Below, piece by piece: positions 1 to 11,507 of a stretch of 11,507 nucleotides of DNA. Source of the stretch: Pseudomonadota bacterium. GTDB lineage: Bacteria > Pseudomonadota > Gammaproteobacteria > Burkholderiales > Burkholderiaceae_C. Positions within the stretch are counted from its first letter, which is position 1; each line of letters begins with the position of its first letter. A program made the translations under genes and the position numbers. The notes under the pieces were generated by a model that did no database searches, was not told where the DNA came from, and saw only the letters and a list, made by a program, of their open reading frames with translations. The DNA is taken from positions 1-11,507 of the forward strand of contig JAEXBL010000008.1 of assembly GCA_023394015.1 (NCBI GenBank), in the 5' to 3' direction.

Positions 1-933
1 GTGTTCCTCGCCTTCCAGGGCACCTTCGCCGCCATCACCTGCTGCCTGATCGTGGGCGCCTTCGCCGAGCGCATCAAATTCTCGGCCGTGCTGGCCTTCA
101 TGGTGCTCTGGTTCAGCTTCAGCTACGTGCCGATGGCGCACATCGTCTGGGGCGGCGGCCTGCTGGCGCAGGACGGCGCGCTGGACTTCGCCGGCGGCAC
201 CGTGGTGCACATCAACGCCGGCGTGGCCGGTCTGGTGGGCGCCTGGCTGGTGGGCCAGCGCATCGGCTTCGGGCGCGAGGCCTTCACGCCGCACAGCCTG
301 ACGCTGACCATGGTCGGCGCCTCGCTGCTGTGGGTGGGCTGGTTCGGCTTCAACGCCGGCTCGGCCGGGGCCGCCGACGGCAGCGCCGCGCTGGCCTTCG
401 TCAACACCGTGCTGGCCACCGCCGCCGCCACGCTGGGCTGGCTGCTGGGCGAGGCGCTGCACAAGGCCAAGGCCTCGATGCTGGGCGCCGCCTCGGGCGC
501 CGTGGCCGGGCTGGTGGCGGTGACGCCGGCGGCCGGCTTCGTCGGGCCGATGGGCGCCATCGCCATCGGTCTGGTCGCTGGCCCGGCCTGCCTGTGGGGC
601 GTGAGCGGCCTCAAGCGCCTGCTGCGCGTGGACGACGCCTTCGACGCCTTCGGCGTGCCCGGCGTGGGCGGCATCGTCGGCGCGCGGCTGACCGGCGTGT
701 TCGCCGCGCCCGCCCTGGGCGGCACCGGCGGCGCCGATCCGGCCGGCTTTGCCATGGCGGCGCAGGTGTGGGTGCAGACGAAGAGCGTGCTGTTCACCAT
801 CGCCTGGTCGGGCGTGGTCTCGCTGCTGGCCTACAAGCTGGTCGACTGGACCATCGGCCTGCGCGTGAGCGAGGAGCAGGAGCGCCAGGGCCTGGACATC
901 GCCAGCCACGGCGAGACCGCCTACAGCCGCTGA
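1..933 (+). CDS. amtB: Ammonium channel AmtB, C-terminal part (5' end outside window)
   Basis: Inner-membrane channel of the Amt/Mep/Rh family that takes up ammonium. The window opens inside the gene: the GTG at position 1 is an internal Val codon, and about the first 98 residues of the mature E. coli protein plus any signal peptide are missing. The 310 visible residues align with E. coli AmtB without gaps at the sites checked, with an offset of 98: Phe9 (F107), Trp50 (W148), Asp62 (D160), His70 (H168), Phe117 (F215) and Ser121 (S219) are all present. The C-terminal tail, ending GLDIASHGETAYSR, is the conserved cytoplasmic tail that in this family contacts the PII protein GlnK. Oddity: codon 658-660 is CCC (Pro220) where E. 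coli has His318, the second twin-histidine. The reading frame is intact around it. No glnK is visible; it is often upstream, outside the window. Family assignment is secure; transport activity is not, given the substitution. Confidence 0.95.
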   Translation: MFLAFQGTFAAITCCLIVGAFAERIKFSAVLAFMVLWFSFSYVPMAHIVWGGGLLAQDGALDFAGGTVVHINAGVAGLVGAWLVGQRIGFGREAFTPHSLTLTMVGASLLWVGWFGFNAGSAGAADGSAALAFVNTVLATAAATLGWLLGEALHKAKASMLGAASGAVAGLVAVTPAAGFVGPMGAIAIGLVAGPACLWGVSGLKRLLRVDDAFDAFGVPGVGGIVGARLTGVFAAPALGGTGGADPAGFAMAAQVWVQTKSVLFTIAWSGVVSLLAYKLVDWTIGLRVSEEQERQGLDIASHGETAYSR

Positions 934-958
934 CGCGGCGCCCGCCCGGGCGTATTCA

Positions 959-981
959 GGGCCTGCCCCGGCGGCAGGCCC
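959..981 (+). terminator. Perfect hairpin downstream of amtB (possible terminator)
   Basis: A 9-bp perfect stem (959-967 with 973-981) has a 5-base loop and lies 26 bases after the amtB stop. No T-run follows, so it may be a weak or Rho-assisted terminator, or only a 3'-end stabiliser. The rest of the 934-1099 gap holds a second GC-rich hairpin (1051-1060 with 1071-1079, one bulged G) about 20 bases before glcE, and a small AT-richer patch at 1031-1050 where a promoter for glcE could lie. I see no convincing -35/-10 pair there. Confidence 0.3.
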
Positions 982-1099
982 GCTATGGTGCCAGATCGGA
1001 CCCCAGCGCCTGCGGGGCAGGCCCAGCCAGCTATGTATTTGGAAGTAACTGGCGCCGCCCCGCGCCGGCAGGGGGCGCCCAGCGGCTACCATCGGCGGC

Positions 1100-2170
1100 A
1101 TGCAAGCCGAGATGCAAGCCCTCATCGACAAGATCCGCAAGGCCGCCGAGCGCGGACGGCCGCTGCGCATCCGCGGTGGCGGCACCAAGGATTTTCATGG
1201 CCAGCAACTGCACGGCGACCTGCTCGACACGCGGCCGCTGGCCGGCGTGGTCAGCTACGAGCCAAGCGAGCTGGTGGTCACCGCCCGCGCCGGCACGCGC
1301 CTGCGCGACTTGCAGGCGCTGCTGGCCGAGCAGGGCCAATGCCTGCCCTTCGAGCCGCCGCTGTTCGGCGTCGCCAGCACCGTGGGTGGCGCCGTGGCGG
1401 CGGGCCTGTCGGGCCCGGCGCGCGCCAGCGTAGGCAGCCTGCGCGACTACGTGCTGGGCGTGCAGCTCATCAACGGCAAGGGCGAGCTGCTCACCTTTGG
1501 CGGCCAGGTGATGAAGAACGTGGCCGGCTACGACGTCAGCCGGCTGATGGCCGGCTCGATGGGCACGCTGGCGGTGGTCGCCGAGGTCAGCCTGAAGGTG
1601 CTGCCGGTGCCGCCGGCCGAGCGCACGCTGGTGTTCGAGCTGAGCGAGACCAGCGCCCGCCAGCAGCTCAACCGCTGGGGCGGCCAGCCGCTGCCGCTGA
1701 ACGCCAGCTGCTGGGCCGACGGCCAACTGGTGCTGCGCCTGCGTGGCGCCCGCGCCGCCATCGACAGCGCCACCAGGCTGATGGGCGGCCAGGTGCTGGA
1801 CCAGGAGCGCGCCGAGCGCCAGTGGGCCGCGCTGCGCGACCAGGCGCTGCCCTTCTTTCGCCTGGCACCGGGCGAGGCGCTGTGGCGCGCCAGCGTGCCC
1901 GACACCGCCACGCCGCTCAACCTGGGGCCGACACTGCTCGAATGGCACGGTGCGCAGCGCTGGGTCAAAGGCGCGCCGGCCGATGCCCCCCGCGTACGCG
2001 ACGCCGCCGCGCGTGCCGGCGGGCACGCCACACTGTTTCGCGGTGGCGACGGCAGCGTGCCCGTGTTCACCCCCTTGAGCGCGCCGCTGGCGCGCATCCA
2101 CGCGCAACTCAAGCGCGAGTTCGACCCGGCGGGCATCTTCGGCCCCGGCCGCATGTATTTGGATTTTTGA
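1100..2170 (+). CDS. glcE: Glycolate oxidase FAD-binding subunit GlcE
   Basis: One of the three subunits of glycolate oxidase, which oxidises glycolate to glyoxylate and passes electrons to the membrane quinone pool. The 356 residues match the usual GlcE length (about 350). An FAD-binding PCMH-type domain fills the N-terminal half, with RGGGTKDF near residues 25-32, GSLRDYVLG at 112-120 and VMKNVAGYDVSRL around 137-148, all typical of the GlcD/GlcE family. The C-terminal half is the less conserved oxidase cap. GlcE is shorter than GlcD (about 500 residues), which separates the two. The start is the first ATG; a second ATG at 1112 is equally possible, and neither has a strong Shine-Dalgarno sequence. 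The stop TGA is followed directly by the glcF ATG, so the two are translationally coupled. The partner glcD is not adjacent: an ammonium channel gene lies upstream instead. Confidence 0.93.
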   Translation: MQAEMQALIDKIRKAAERGRPLRIRGGGTKDFHGQQLHGDLLDTRPLAGVVSYEPSELVVTARAGTRLRDLQALLAEQGQCLPFEPPLFGVASTVGGAVAAGLSGPARASVGSLRDYVLGVQLINGKGELLTFGGQVMKNVAGYDVSRLMAGSMGTLAVVAEVSLKVLPVPPAERTLVFELSETSARQQLNRWGGQPLPLNASCWADGQLVLRLRGARAAIDSATRLMGGQVLDQERAERQWAALRDQALPFFRLAPGEALWRASVPDTATPLNLGPTLLEWHGAQRWVKGAPADAPRVRDAAARAGGHATLFRGGDGSVPVFTPLSAPLARIHAQLKREFDPAGIFGPGRMYLDF

Positions 2171-3415
2171 ATGCAGACCGACCTGGCGCCCGAATACCGC
2201 GACACCGAGCTTGGCCGCGAGGCCGAGGCGATCCTGCGCAAGTGCGTGCACTGCGGCTTTTGCACCGCCACCTGCCCCACCTACCAGCTGCTGGGCGACG
2301 AGCTGGACGGCCCGCGCGGGCGCATCTACCTGATCAAGCAGGTGCTCGAAGGCCACGCGCCCACCCGCGCCACGCAGCAGCACCTGGACCGCTGCCTGAC
2401 CTGCCGCAACTGCGAAACCACCTGCCCCAGCGGCGTGCAGTACGGCCACCTGATCGACATCGGCCGCCAGGTGGTGGAGGCCAAGGTGCCGCGCCCGCCG
2501 GCCGAGGCGCGCACGCGCCGGCTGCTGAAAGACGGCATCACCTCGCCCCTGTTCGGCCCGGCCATGCGCCTGGGGCAGTCGGTGCGCGGCTTTCTGCCCG
2601 CCGCCCTGAAGAACAAGGTGCCCGAGCGCCGCGCCGCCGGCGCCTGGCCCAAGCGCAGCCACCCGCGCAAGGTGCTGCTGCTGGAAGGCTGCGTGCAGCC
2701 GGCCATGGCGCCCAACATCAACGCCGCCACCGCGCGCGTGCTGGATGCCGCCGGCATCGAATGCGTGCTGCCGCGCGGCCAGGGCTGCTGCGGCGCGGTG
2801 AAGTTCCACCTGGCCGACAGCGAGGGCGGGCTCAGGCAGATGCGCGCCAACATCGACGCCTGGTGGCCGCACATCGAGCGCGAGTCGGTCGAGGCCATCG
2901 TCGTCAACGCCTCGGGCTGCGGCGTGCAGGTCAAGGAATACGGCCACCTGCTGCGCCACGAGCCGCGCTACGCCGACCGCGCGGCCCGCGTGTCGGCGCT
3001 GGCGCGCGACGTGAGCGAGCTGCTGCCCGACATCGCCGCCGCACTGCAGGGCCGCGTGCGCCCGCCCGCCGGCCCGCTGGCCTGGCACCCACCCTGCACG
3101 CTGCAGCATGGCCAGCAGCTGCGCGGCGGCGTCGAGCAGCACCTGGGCGCGCTCGGGTTCGACCTGCGCCCCGCGGCGCAGGAGCCGCACCTGTGCTGCG
3201 GCTCGGCCGGCACCTATTCGGTGCTGCAGCCCGAGCTGGCCACGCGCCTGCGCGACCGCAAGCTCGGCCACCTGCTGGGCGACAACGCCAATGAGCGCCC
3301 CAAGGCCGTGCTGTCGGCCAATATCGGCTGCATCACCCACCTGCAGTCCGGCACCGAGCTGCCGGTGCGGCACTGGGTGGAGCTGCTGGACGAAGCCCTG
3401 GCCGCTTCAAAATAA
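2171..3415 (+). CDS. glcF: Glycolate oxidase iron-sulfur subunit GlcF
   Basis: Electron-transfer subunit of glycolate oxidase, carrying electrons from the flavin subunits GlcD/GlcE towards the quinone pool. Two ferredoxin-type [4Fe-4S] motifs, CX2CX2CX3CP, lie at Cys25/28/31/35 and Cys75/78/81/85. Two CCG (DUF224-type) domains follow: Gly173-Cys174 with Cys206-Cys207-Gly208, then Cys342-Cys343-Gly344. This order and the 414-residue length are those of GlcF (E. coli about 407). LldE and GlpC are built from related parts but lack this exact arrangement beside a GlcE gene. The ATG abuts the glcE stop, so both subunits come from one message. The TAA stop lies in a short AT-rich repeat-like tract (3405-3430), and the next gene is convergent with only 17 bases between stops. 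Confidence 0.95.
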   Translation: MQTDLAPEYRDTELGREAEAILRKCVHCGFCTATCPTYQLLGDELDGPRGRIYLIKQVLEGHAPTRATQQHLDRCLTCRNCETTCPSGVQYGHLIDIGRQVVEAKVPRPPAEARTRRLLKDGITSPLFGPAMRLGQSVRGFLPAALKNKVPERRAAGAWPKRSHPRKVLLLEGCVQPAMAPNINAATARVLDAAGIECVLPRGQGCCGAVKFHLADSEGGLRQMRANIDAWWPHIERESVEAIVVNASGCGVQVKEYGHLLRHEPRYADRAARVSALARDVSELLPDIAAALQGRVRPPAGPLAWHPPCTLQHGQQLRGGVEQHLGALGFDLRPAAQEPHLCCGSAGTYSVLQPELATRLRDRKLGHLLGDNANERPKAVLSANIGCITHLQSGTELPVRHWVELLDEALAASK

Positions 3416-4121: not shown

Positions 4122-5132
4122 GTGCGCTACACCTACGTCTTCGTTGGCCTCACGCCGTCCGAGCGGGCGCTGCTCGAATCGCTGTTCGCGCTCAACGCCG
4201 GCGAGGTGGACGAGCTGCGGCCGGTGACGCGGCCGGAGGAGGCGCACCTGATCATCGTCAACGGCGACGACCGCTCGGTGGTCAACTGCCTGCGCCACAA
4301 CAACCCGCACGCGCTGGTGGTGCGGGTCGGCCACCCGCCCGGCGCGGCGCTGGACGAGATGCCCACGCTGCGCCGCCCGCTGGATATGCAAGGCGTGGCC
4401 GAGGTGCTGGCCGGGCTGGACTGGCCCGAGCTGCCGCCCGGCACCGAGCCGGCCGACTTCCACCCCTTGTCCGGGCCGCCATCGGGCCCGACCCTGGTGC
4501 CACCCGACACCAGCCAGCCGGCCGAGTCGCAGCCCGCCACGCCGGCGCCGGACGCCAGCGATTCGTCTTTCGCGCCCACCACGGCCTCGATGCCGGCCAC
4601 CGTGCCCGCCACCCATGCGGCGGGCATGGCCGGCCTGCCGGTGTCGGCGCGCGCCACCTGGGCCGTCAGCGAGCACGCGCCGCTGCTGCCGCCGCAGCCG
4701 CTGGTCGCCCCGCAGGCGCTGCCCGGCCAGGCCTTCAGCGACGACGCCCATGCCGACGTGATGGTGGTGGTGGGCATGCTGGGCCGGCGCTCGCACACGC
4801 TGCCGCGCGGCATCCGCCGGCTGGGCTTTCGCGTGCGCCTGATCGAGGGCGCCGACGCCGCGCTGGCGGCGTTCGCCGAACGGCCCCTGCCCTTCGTGTT
4901 TCTCGACCAGACCACCCTGGGCGAGGACCTGCTGCCGCTGGCGCGCACGCTGACCGCGCTGCGCCCCATGCCCGGCCAGCCGCCGCATGTGGTGGTGGTG
5001 GCGCGCCGCGGCACCGGCTTCGACCGCCTGCGCGCGCGCCTGGCGGGCTGCGTGTGGATGGCGGTGCCCATCGACCGCGCGCGCCTGGTGCGCTTTTTTT
5101 CCCACCGCGGCCTGCAGCCCCAGCAGCCCTGA
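4122..5132 (+). CDS. Uncharacterised protein with two degenerate receiver-like domains
   Basis: The 336 residues show two alpha/beta halves joined by a long Pro/Ala/Ser/Thr-rich linker (about residues 105-210), with no signal peptide or membrane segment, so a cytoplasmic protein. Residues 2-100 look like a receiver fold: a hydrophobic strand YVFVGL, a strand LIIVN ending at Asn47 where the phosphoacceptor Asp is expected, and a late LRRPLDMQGVAEVL segment resembling the K-P-(F/L) signature with Arg for Lys. The C-terminal half (about 214-330) repeats this, with MVVVGML, FVFLD ending at Asp262, VVVVARR, and VPIDRARLVRFF in place of the K-P segment. The fold is an inference from pattern alone; I recognise no family and assign no function. 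The start is GTG with no Shine-Dalgarno; the next in-frame Met is residue 80, so GTG is preferred. Codon use matches its neighbours. Confidence 0.75.
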   Translation: MRYTYVFVGLTPSERALLESLFALNAGEVDELRPVTRPEEAHLIIVNGDDRSVVNCLRHNNPHALVVRVGHPPGAALDEMPTLRRPLDMQGVAEVLAGLDWPELPPGTEPADFHPLSGPPSGPTLVPPDTSQPAESQPATPAPDASDSSFAPTTASMPATVPATHAAGMAGLPVSARATWAVSEHAPLLPPQPLVAPQALPGQAFSDDAHADVMVVVGMLGRRSHTLPRGIRRLGFRVRLIEGADAALAAFAERPLPFVFLDQTTLGEDLLPLARTLTALRPMPGQPPHVVVVARRGTGFDRLRARLAGCVWMAVPIDRARLVRFFSHRGLQPQQP

Positions 5133-5134
5133 GC

Positions 5135-5154
5135 GCGGGCCGGGCCTGCTTTTT
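5135..5154 (+). terminator. Probable Rho-independent terminator after the receiver-like gene
   Basis: A short stem (5135-5139 with 5145-5149, one G-T pair, 5-base loop) is followed at once by five T. It lies three bases after the TGA of the receiver-like gene, and its T-run overlaps the stop codon of the convergent permease gene. A wider inverted repeat, 5133-5139 with 5157-5163, encloses it. Confidence 0.5.
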
Positions 5155-6073
5155 ATCCCGCGCGCCCCGGCGGCCGAATCGACAGCAGGGCGGCCAGCAC
5201 GATCAGCGCGCCGCCGGCCCAGGTCCAGGCGGTGGGCGTGGCGGCGCCCAGCAGCACCGCCGAGACGGCGGCGAACACCACCTCGGCCAGCATGATCAGC
5301 GCCGTCACCTGCGCCGGCAGGCGCGCGGCGCCGTACTGCAGCGCCAGGTTGCCGCCCAGAAAGGCCAGGGTCAGCACCAGTGCCCAGGGCAGCCAGGCGG
5401 CGGACAGCGCCGGCGCCCCGCCCTCGGCCAGGCCGGCCAGCACCAGCGCGCCCGACATCAGCAGGCCGCCGCTGAACATGGCCAGCACGCGCGCATCGCG
5501 CGGCGTGTCGCGCCAGCGGCGCAGCAGGGCGTTGGTCAGCGCAAAGCAAAAGCCGCCCAGCAGGGCCAGAAAGTCGGCCGCGCCACTGGGCAGCGGCCAG
5601 GCCGCGCCCGGGCGGTGCAGCACCAGCACCAGGCCGGCCAGGGCCAGCACCAGCCGCCCCAGCGCCGCGCGCGTGGGCCGCTCGCCCAGCAGCCACCAGG
5701 CCAGGCCGACCGACCACACCGGCATCAGGTAGAACAGCAGGGTCACCCGCACCACGTCGCCCACGGTGACCGACCAGTTGAAGCCCACGTTGGTCATGCC
5801 CGCGGCCGCCACCAGGGCCAGCAGCTGCGGATGCGCCCACAGGCTGCGCAGGCTGCCGGGCCGCCAGGCCAGCAGCGCCGCCAGCGCGCCGGCATAGACG
5901 ATGACGGTGCTCCACAGCGGATGCAGCCCATGCCCGTGCAGCGCCTTGAAGGCGATCCACGACAGCCCCCACACCATGGCGTTGAACAGCAGCGCCAGCG
6001 CCGGCAGCGCAGGCAAGTGAGCAGGTACGGCAGGCATGGTGAAGATCAACAACGACAGCGCACGCAGCGCCAT
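5153..6073 (-). CDS. EamA/DMT-family permease
   Basis: Inner-membrane transporter of the drug/metabolite superfamily. The 306 residues contain about ten hydrophobic segments in two EamA repeats of about 140 residues each. Helix-turn signatures include FNAMVWGLSWIAFKAL in the first repeat and LALLGGFCFALTNALLRRW plus the late AEVVFAAVSAVLLG in the second, where EamA proteins usually have an E-P/V-hydrophobic helix. Substrate cannot be told from sequence. The ATG at 6073 lies 11 bases from the last hairpin of repeat copy A; a second in-frame ATG at 6037 would give 294 residues. Neither has a clear Shine-Dalgarno. It lies downstream of lplT on the same strand, 123 bases apart and separated by the repeat, so it may be co-transcribed with lplT. 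Confidence 0.88.
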   Translation of the reverse strand: MALRALSLLIFTMPAVPAHLPALPALALLFNAMVWGLSWIAFKALHGHGLHPLWSTVIVYAGALAALLAWRPGSLRSLWAHPQLLALVAAAGMTNVGFNWSVTVGDVVRVTLLFYLMPVWSVGLAWWLLGERPTRAALGRLVLALAGLVLVLHRPGAAWPLPSGAADFLALLGGFCFALTNALLRRWRDTPRDARVLAMFSGGLLMSGALVLAGLAEGGAPALSAAWLPWALVLTLAFLGGNLALQYGAARLPAQVTALIMLAEVVFAAVSAVLLGAATPTAWTWAGGALIVLAALLSIRPPGRAG

Positions 6074-6084
6074 AGAAAATTCAG

Positions 6085-6207
6085 ATGGCCGCGGAACAGG
6101 CCGTTCGAGAACGCCGTGGTCGGGGTCCCCCCGACCACCAGCGTTGTCCCCCTGGGGAAAGCCTGCCCCGGACTTGATCCGGGGGCGCGCAGCGCCTCAG
6201 GGGGGGG
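6085..6207 (-). repeat. Modular hairpin repeat, copy A
   Basis: Read on the minus strand it starts with CCCCCCTGAGG (6205-6195). It then has a 7-bp stem with 5-base loop (6166-6172 / 6178-6184), a small CCCC/GGGG hairpin (6147-6158), a perfect 10-bp stem with 3-base loop (6116-6125 / 6129-6138), and a 6-bp GGCC hairpin (6085-6104). Copies B (9060-9181) and L (7473-7585) share the same blocks in the same order; A and B share an identical run of about 26 bases around the 7-bp stem. It fills the lplT-permease gap, and its CCCCCCTGAGG end supplies the TGA stop of lplT (last residues ...APP). Confidence 0.85.
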
Positions 6208-8969: not shown

Positions 8970-9059
8970 GCGCGCCAGCGCCGGTCATCGAGCGCAGCGA
9001 AGCCGTGCTTCATTTCAGTGATCCAGGCCACTCACCTTGCATGAAACTCGAAGCGCATG

Positions 9060-9181
9060 ATGGTCGCGGAGCAGACCATGCGTGGGCGCCGTGGCCGGGG
9101 TTCCCCCGGTCACTGGCGCCGTCCCCATGGGGGAAGCCTGCCCCGGACTTGATCCGGGGACGCCGCAGGCGGCACAGGGGG
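9060..9181 (-). repeat. Modular hairpin repeat, copy B
   Basis: Same block order and orientation as copy A: 7-bp stem with 5-base loop (9141-9147 / 9153-9159), CCCC/GGGG hairpin near 9122-9133, 10-bp main stem with one G-T pair and 3-base loop (9091-9100 / 9104-9113), and the 6-bp terminal hairpin (9060-9065 / 9074-9079). The outer end is degenerate (CACAGGGGG in place of CTCAGGGGG). It lies between the convergent alr and TSUP genes, four bases beyond the TSUP stop. Confidence 0.85.

Positions 9182-10342: not shown

Positions 10343-11507
<1,165 letters not shown>

What the first reader, a model, noticed from the sequence alone, without database searches (positions are those of the whole stretch)
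655..663. Ammonium channel with proline in place of the second twin-histidine
Codon 658-660 reads CCC, giving DAFGVPGVGGIVG where E. coli AmtB and most relatives have D-x-FGVHGVxGI. With a constant offset of 98, six other pore or signature residues line up exactly (F107, W148, D160, H168, F215, S219), so the proline falls on H318. The twin histidines line the conduction path and are among the most conserved residues of the family; fungal Mep2-like variants change the first one, not usually the second. The rest of the frame is intact, so this is not a decayed gene. Either this clade has a changed conduction or sensing mode, or one base (CAC to CCC) is an error or a very recent mutation.
Basis: partly seen in the sequence, partly recalled or inferred. 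Interest (0 to 1): 0.72.

Follow-up and report, generated by a model that had tools for sequence, protein, structure and literature searches.

The report
Probable sequence error in ammonium channel
An ammonium channel gene from an Ottowia-like bacterium seems to have lost one of its two pore histidines, but no relative examined shares the change, a second unlikely change lies beside it, and a conserved gene at the other end of the same stretch shows similar ones, so it is most probably a sequencing or assembly error.

Summary
The residue is private: 338 of 338 related sequences examined have His, including the two closest proteins at 92% and 90% identity. No clade trait is seen. As a control I used argG, cut off at the other end of the window. 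It has Arg for Leu and Ala for Asp, 18 bases apart, at positions uniform in 30 of 30 loci and 120 of 120 proteins. All four changes read as A:T to C:G. Six genes between hold one such change (in gpx) at invariant second codon positions. Harsh changes of one class in two unrelated conserved genes fit a noisy metagenome consensus better than a new conduction mode. This is inferred: no reads were available, and a real, recent, damaging mutation is not excluded. Even a real loss of this histidine would not be a new kind of channel: H318A AmtB has been solved and assayed (passages). Low interest.

The parts
1..933 (+). amt, AmtB-type ammonium channel gene, 5' end cut off by the window start (310 codons seen)
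   Evidence: PF00909, 326.8 bits; frame open to the stop at 931-933
658..660 (+). codon CCC (Pro) at AmtB position 318; relatives have His
   Evidence: 0 of 338 relatives share it; in 30 genome loci the codon is CAC 22, CAT 8
685..687 (+). codon CGG (Arg) at AmtB position 327; relatives have Ile, Leu or Val
   Evidence: 0 of 338 relatives share it: Ile 203, Leu 123, Val 12
10343..11506 (-). argG (argininosuccinate synthase), 5' end cut off by the window end; used as a control
11219..11221 (-). argG codon CGC (Arg) where relatives have Leu
   Evidence: Leu in 30 of 30 loci and 120 of 120 proteins
11201..11203 (-). argG codon GCC (Ala) where relatives have Asp
   Evidence: Asp in 30 of 30 loci and 120 of 120 proteins

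Best explanation
The gene is an ordinary Ottowia-like AmtB-type ammonium channel and the proline is most likely not in the organism. Base 659 is probably wrong in a thin or noisy consensus, as are probably base 686 and at least two bases of argG at the other end. Shown: the change is private, it has a second private and harsh change 27 bases away, and argG has similar ones. Inferred: that the cause is sequencing or assembly error, and that the window is a whole short metagenome contig.
For: His in 338 of 338 relatives, including proteins at 92% and 90% identity. Of 310 residues only two, this Pro and the Arg at position 327, are shared by none of the 338. argG has Arg for Leu and Ala for Asp, 18 bases apart, each at a column uniform in 30 of 30 loci and 120 of 120 proteins; the two solved relatives shown, 5us8 and 1k92, also have Leu and Asp. 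At invariant second codon positions 5 of the window's 10 private changes are A:T to C:G, against 24 of 178 in the relatives. Genes run off both window ends and no whole genome is held.
Against: No reads were seen. The mere number of private residues is not extreme: 2 in amt and 4 in argG, where single other sequences have up to 14 and 8, though the means are 0.78 and 0.63. The two end genes are also the best conserved of those compared, so oddities show more easily there. Of the five amt columns private against 30 genomes, only the Pro stays private against 338. The inner gene gpx also has one A:T to C:G change. That base 686 is T to G assumes a CTG ancestor; 27 of 30 loci have ATC there. I found no paper tying this error class to such contigs.
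Confidence: 0.8

Rival explanations
1. The bases are real but very recent and damaging: in this strain amt has just been hit, so the gene is an incipient pseudogene, possibly in a mutator lineage (loss of MutT raises A:T to C:G changes; recalled, from no call).
For: The four changes stressed all read as A:T to C:G. The rest of the frame is intact and close to relatives, as expected if the hits are recent.
Against: argG, a biosynthetic gene, would have to be hit at two uniform positions at the same time. The changes sit in pairs 27 and 18 bases apart, while the six inner genes compared show no private residue at 659 invariant columns except a TTG start codon.
Confidence: 0.16
2. A working Amt in which proline replaces the second pore histidine and changes selectivity or sensing.
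For: H318A AmtB, with the other His intact, still supports growth of yeast on ammonium while methylamine transport is lost (PMC3647058, passages seen), so loss of this His need not abolish conduction.
Against: 0 of 338 relatives share it. Proline in mid-helix is harsher than Ala, and an Arg nine residues on in the same stretch would add to the damage (inference). argG shows the same kind of change with no channel to adapt. Only PF00909 is found in the part seen, no fused sensor domain.
Confidence: 0.03

Closest known systems
AmtB-type ammonium channel (Amt/Mep/Rh family, PF00909)
   Same: Pfam match over 310 residues; Phe gate, W148, D160, H168, S219 present; ungapped around the site
   Different: Pro at 318 and Arg at 327, both private; 5' end not in the window
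AmtB H318A, laboratory variant
   Same: second pore histidine lost, first kept; the structure is solved and transport assayed (PMC3647058, passages)
   Different: Pro instead of Ala, and a second change in the same stretch
Fungal Mep1/Mep3 type
   Same: a natural departure from the twin histidines (PMC9040831, passage)
   Different: Glu at the first histidine, fixed in a subfamily; here the second histidine, in a single sequence

Membership tests
Amt/Mep/Rh (PF00909), AmtB type | Pfam PF00909 above the curated cut-off | tested here: met
   326.8 bits, cut-off 23.2
Amt/Mep/Rh (PF00909), AmtB type | First pore histidine (H168) | tested here: met
   CAC at 208-210
Amt/Mep/Rh (PF00909), AmtB type | Second pore histidine (H318) | tested here: not met
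   CCC at 658-660 in the sequence as given; judged a probable error, unproven without reads
Amt/Mep/Rh (PF00909), AmtB type | Phe gate and outer binding site (F107, F215, W148, S219) and D160 | tested here: met
Amt/Mep/Rh (PF00909), AmtB type | Full-length protein with 11 membrane helices | tested here: inconclusive
   the first part of the gene lies outside the window
Amt/Mep/Rh (PF00909), AmtB type | Ammonium transport | not testable with these tools
   needs expression and assay
Fungal Mep1/Mep3 type twin-His variant | Glu at the first pore histidine | tested here: not met
   His at 168

The most novel reading that the evidence does not exclude
The proline is real and the protein works: a natural Amt whose second pore histidine is replaced by a helix-breaking proline, with an Arg nine residues on as a partner change, giving a pore of altered selectivity.
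Probability: 0.03. Interest if true: 0.55.

Novelty: not a real feature. Interest (0 to 1): 0.1.

Why it matters
If true, it would show that the second of the twin histidines can be given up in nature. As it stands it is a caution: a single private residue in a short metagenome sequence should be checked against a second conserved gene of the same sequence before a function is proposed.

Tried and rejected
A clade-wide change: rejected, His in 338 of 338. These are 225 proteins (the best 120 of 8000 scored, and 105 further ones among the best 120 of 391) and 113 loci (80 kept of 588 relatives, 4, 29). They are not all independent: the four loci lie in the genomes of L001, L002, L005 and L008, and some genome loci encode listed proteins. 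Most of the 8000 proteins were scored but not listed, so I did not see their residue.

A search aimed at Pro-bearing relatives, scoring only residues 203-246: 120 of 391 hits were listed, none with Pro.

A nearby His taking the place: rejected, no gap there in the alignment to AmtB.

argG Thr108 (0 of 120 proteins) is not counted, since it is not private among the 30 loci. argG Val202 (absent in 30 loci and 120 proteins) is private but C to T. argG Asp149 is absent in 30 loci but present in 1 of 120 proteins.

Rows left out: inner genes were searched in 34 genomes that I chose among those (399 searched in each). For gpx, 22 of 30 fetched loci were used (four second copies and four distant single hits dropped). 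In one search relatives under 60% identity were also dropped: 13 of 30 for glcE, 3 of 22 for gpx, 1 of 30 for the MFS gene. The frames 4122-5132 and 5153-6073 were not compared. In one search I asked for six loci and the script printed two (L115, L116).

Papers: a listing of 10 of 20 papers with at least two of the terms AmtB, H318, His318, H318P and 'second histidine' shows none with both AmtB and H318P. A search for an Illumina A-to-C/T-to-G bias gave no direct support (12 listed); passages of PMC4381044 say that A and C are the more error-prone bases in MiSeq amplicons.

A structure prediction was not run, since such models respond little to point changes (recalled).

Full report
Bases 658-660 read CCC in a frame open from the window start to the stop at 931-933. 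The protein is an Amt (PF00909, 326.8 bits) whose first part lies outside the window. Against E. coli AmtB the offset is 98 and the part around the site has no gap. F107, W148, D160, H168, F215 and S219 are present and position 318 is Pro.

The residue is private. Of 225 related proteins all have His at this column; with 113 loci added it is 338 of 338. The two closest proteins, P0001 (92%) and P0002 (90%), read FGVHGVGG. A search scoring only the 44 residues around the site, so that Pro-bearing relatives should rank high, listed 120 of 391 hits, none with Pro. So no clade with this change is seen.

A second oddity lies beside it. Of 310 residues only two are shared by none of the 338: this Pro, and an Arg at AmtB position 327 (CGG, 685-687), where relatives have Ile 203, Leu 123, Val 12. 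P0001 and P0002 have Leu there. On a CTG ancestor the changes are A to C at 659 and T to G at 686, 27 bases apart; most genome loci have ATC at the second codon (27 of 30), so that inference is not secure. An Arg in this stretch next to a lost pore histidine looks like noise rather than tuning (inference).

I then asked whether the rest of the window is sound. argG, cut off by the other end, has Arg where 30 of 30 loci and 120 of 120 proteins have Leu, and 18 bases on Ala where all have Asp. The solved relatives 5us8 and 1k92 also have Leu and Asp. On the coding strand these read as T to G and A to C. Against the genome relatives (30 per gene, 22 for gpx) amt has 5 private residues with 194 invariant columns and argG 3 with 264; glcE, glcF, gpx, the MFS gene, alr and tauE together have none with 659 invariant columns, apart from a TTG start codon. 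Four of the five amt residues do occur among the 338 and are ordinary variation. At invariant second codon positions the window has 10 private changes, 5 of them A:T to C:G, against 24 of 178 in the relatives. One of the five is in gpx, so the class is not confined to the ends.

Limits. The number of private residues is not extreme by itself: other sequences reach 14 in amt and 8 in argG. The two end genes are the most conserved of those compared, which makes noise easier to see there. That the window is a whole contig is inferred from genes running off both ends and from the lack of a held genome. No reads were seen, so error is inferred and not shown.

If it were real: single H318A AmtB loses methylamine transport but still supports growth of yeast on ammonium, and its structure is known (PMC3647058, passages). 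Changes of the twin histidines can make the transporter channel-like (PMC9040831, passages; PMC10433425, passages). A Pro form, if it folded, would join this known series.

Verdict. A probable base error in an ordinary amt gene (0.8); a real but recent damaging mutation (0.16); a working proline channel (0.03).

Noticed in passing
10343-11506 (-), codons at 11219-11221, 11201-11203 and 10901-10903: argG has three residues shared by none of 30 loci and 120 proteins: Arg for Leu, Ala for Asp, Val for Ala. Used as the control in this report.
   Followed up: yes
6084-6188 and 9059-9163: A 105-base direct repeat, 82% identical, in two places 2975 bases apart; the nature of the element was not examined.
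   Followed up: no
1-3415: amt is followed by two genes that look like glcE and glcF (FAD-binding and iron-sulphur domains; gene names recalled). The three also lie close together in several relatives, for instance G019, G150 and G008.
   Followed up: partly
4122-5132: An open frame of 336 codons without a Pfam match.
   Followed up: no
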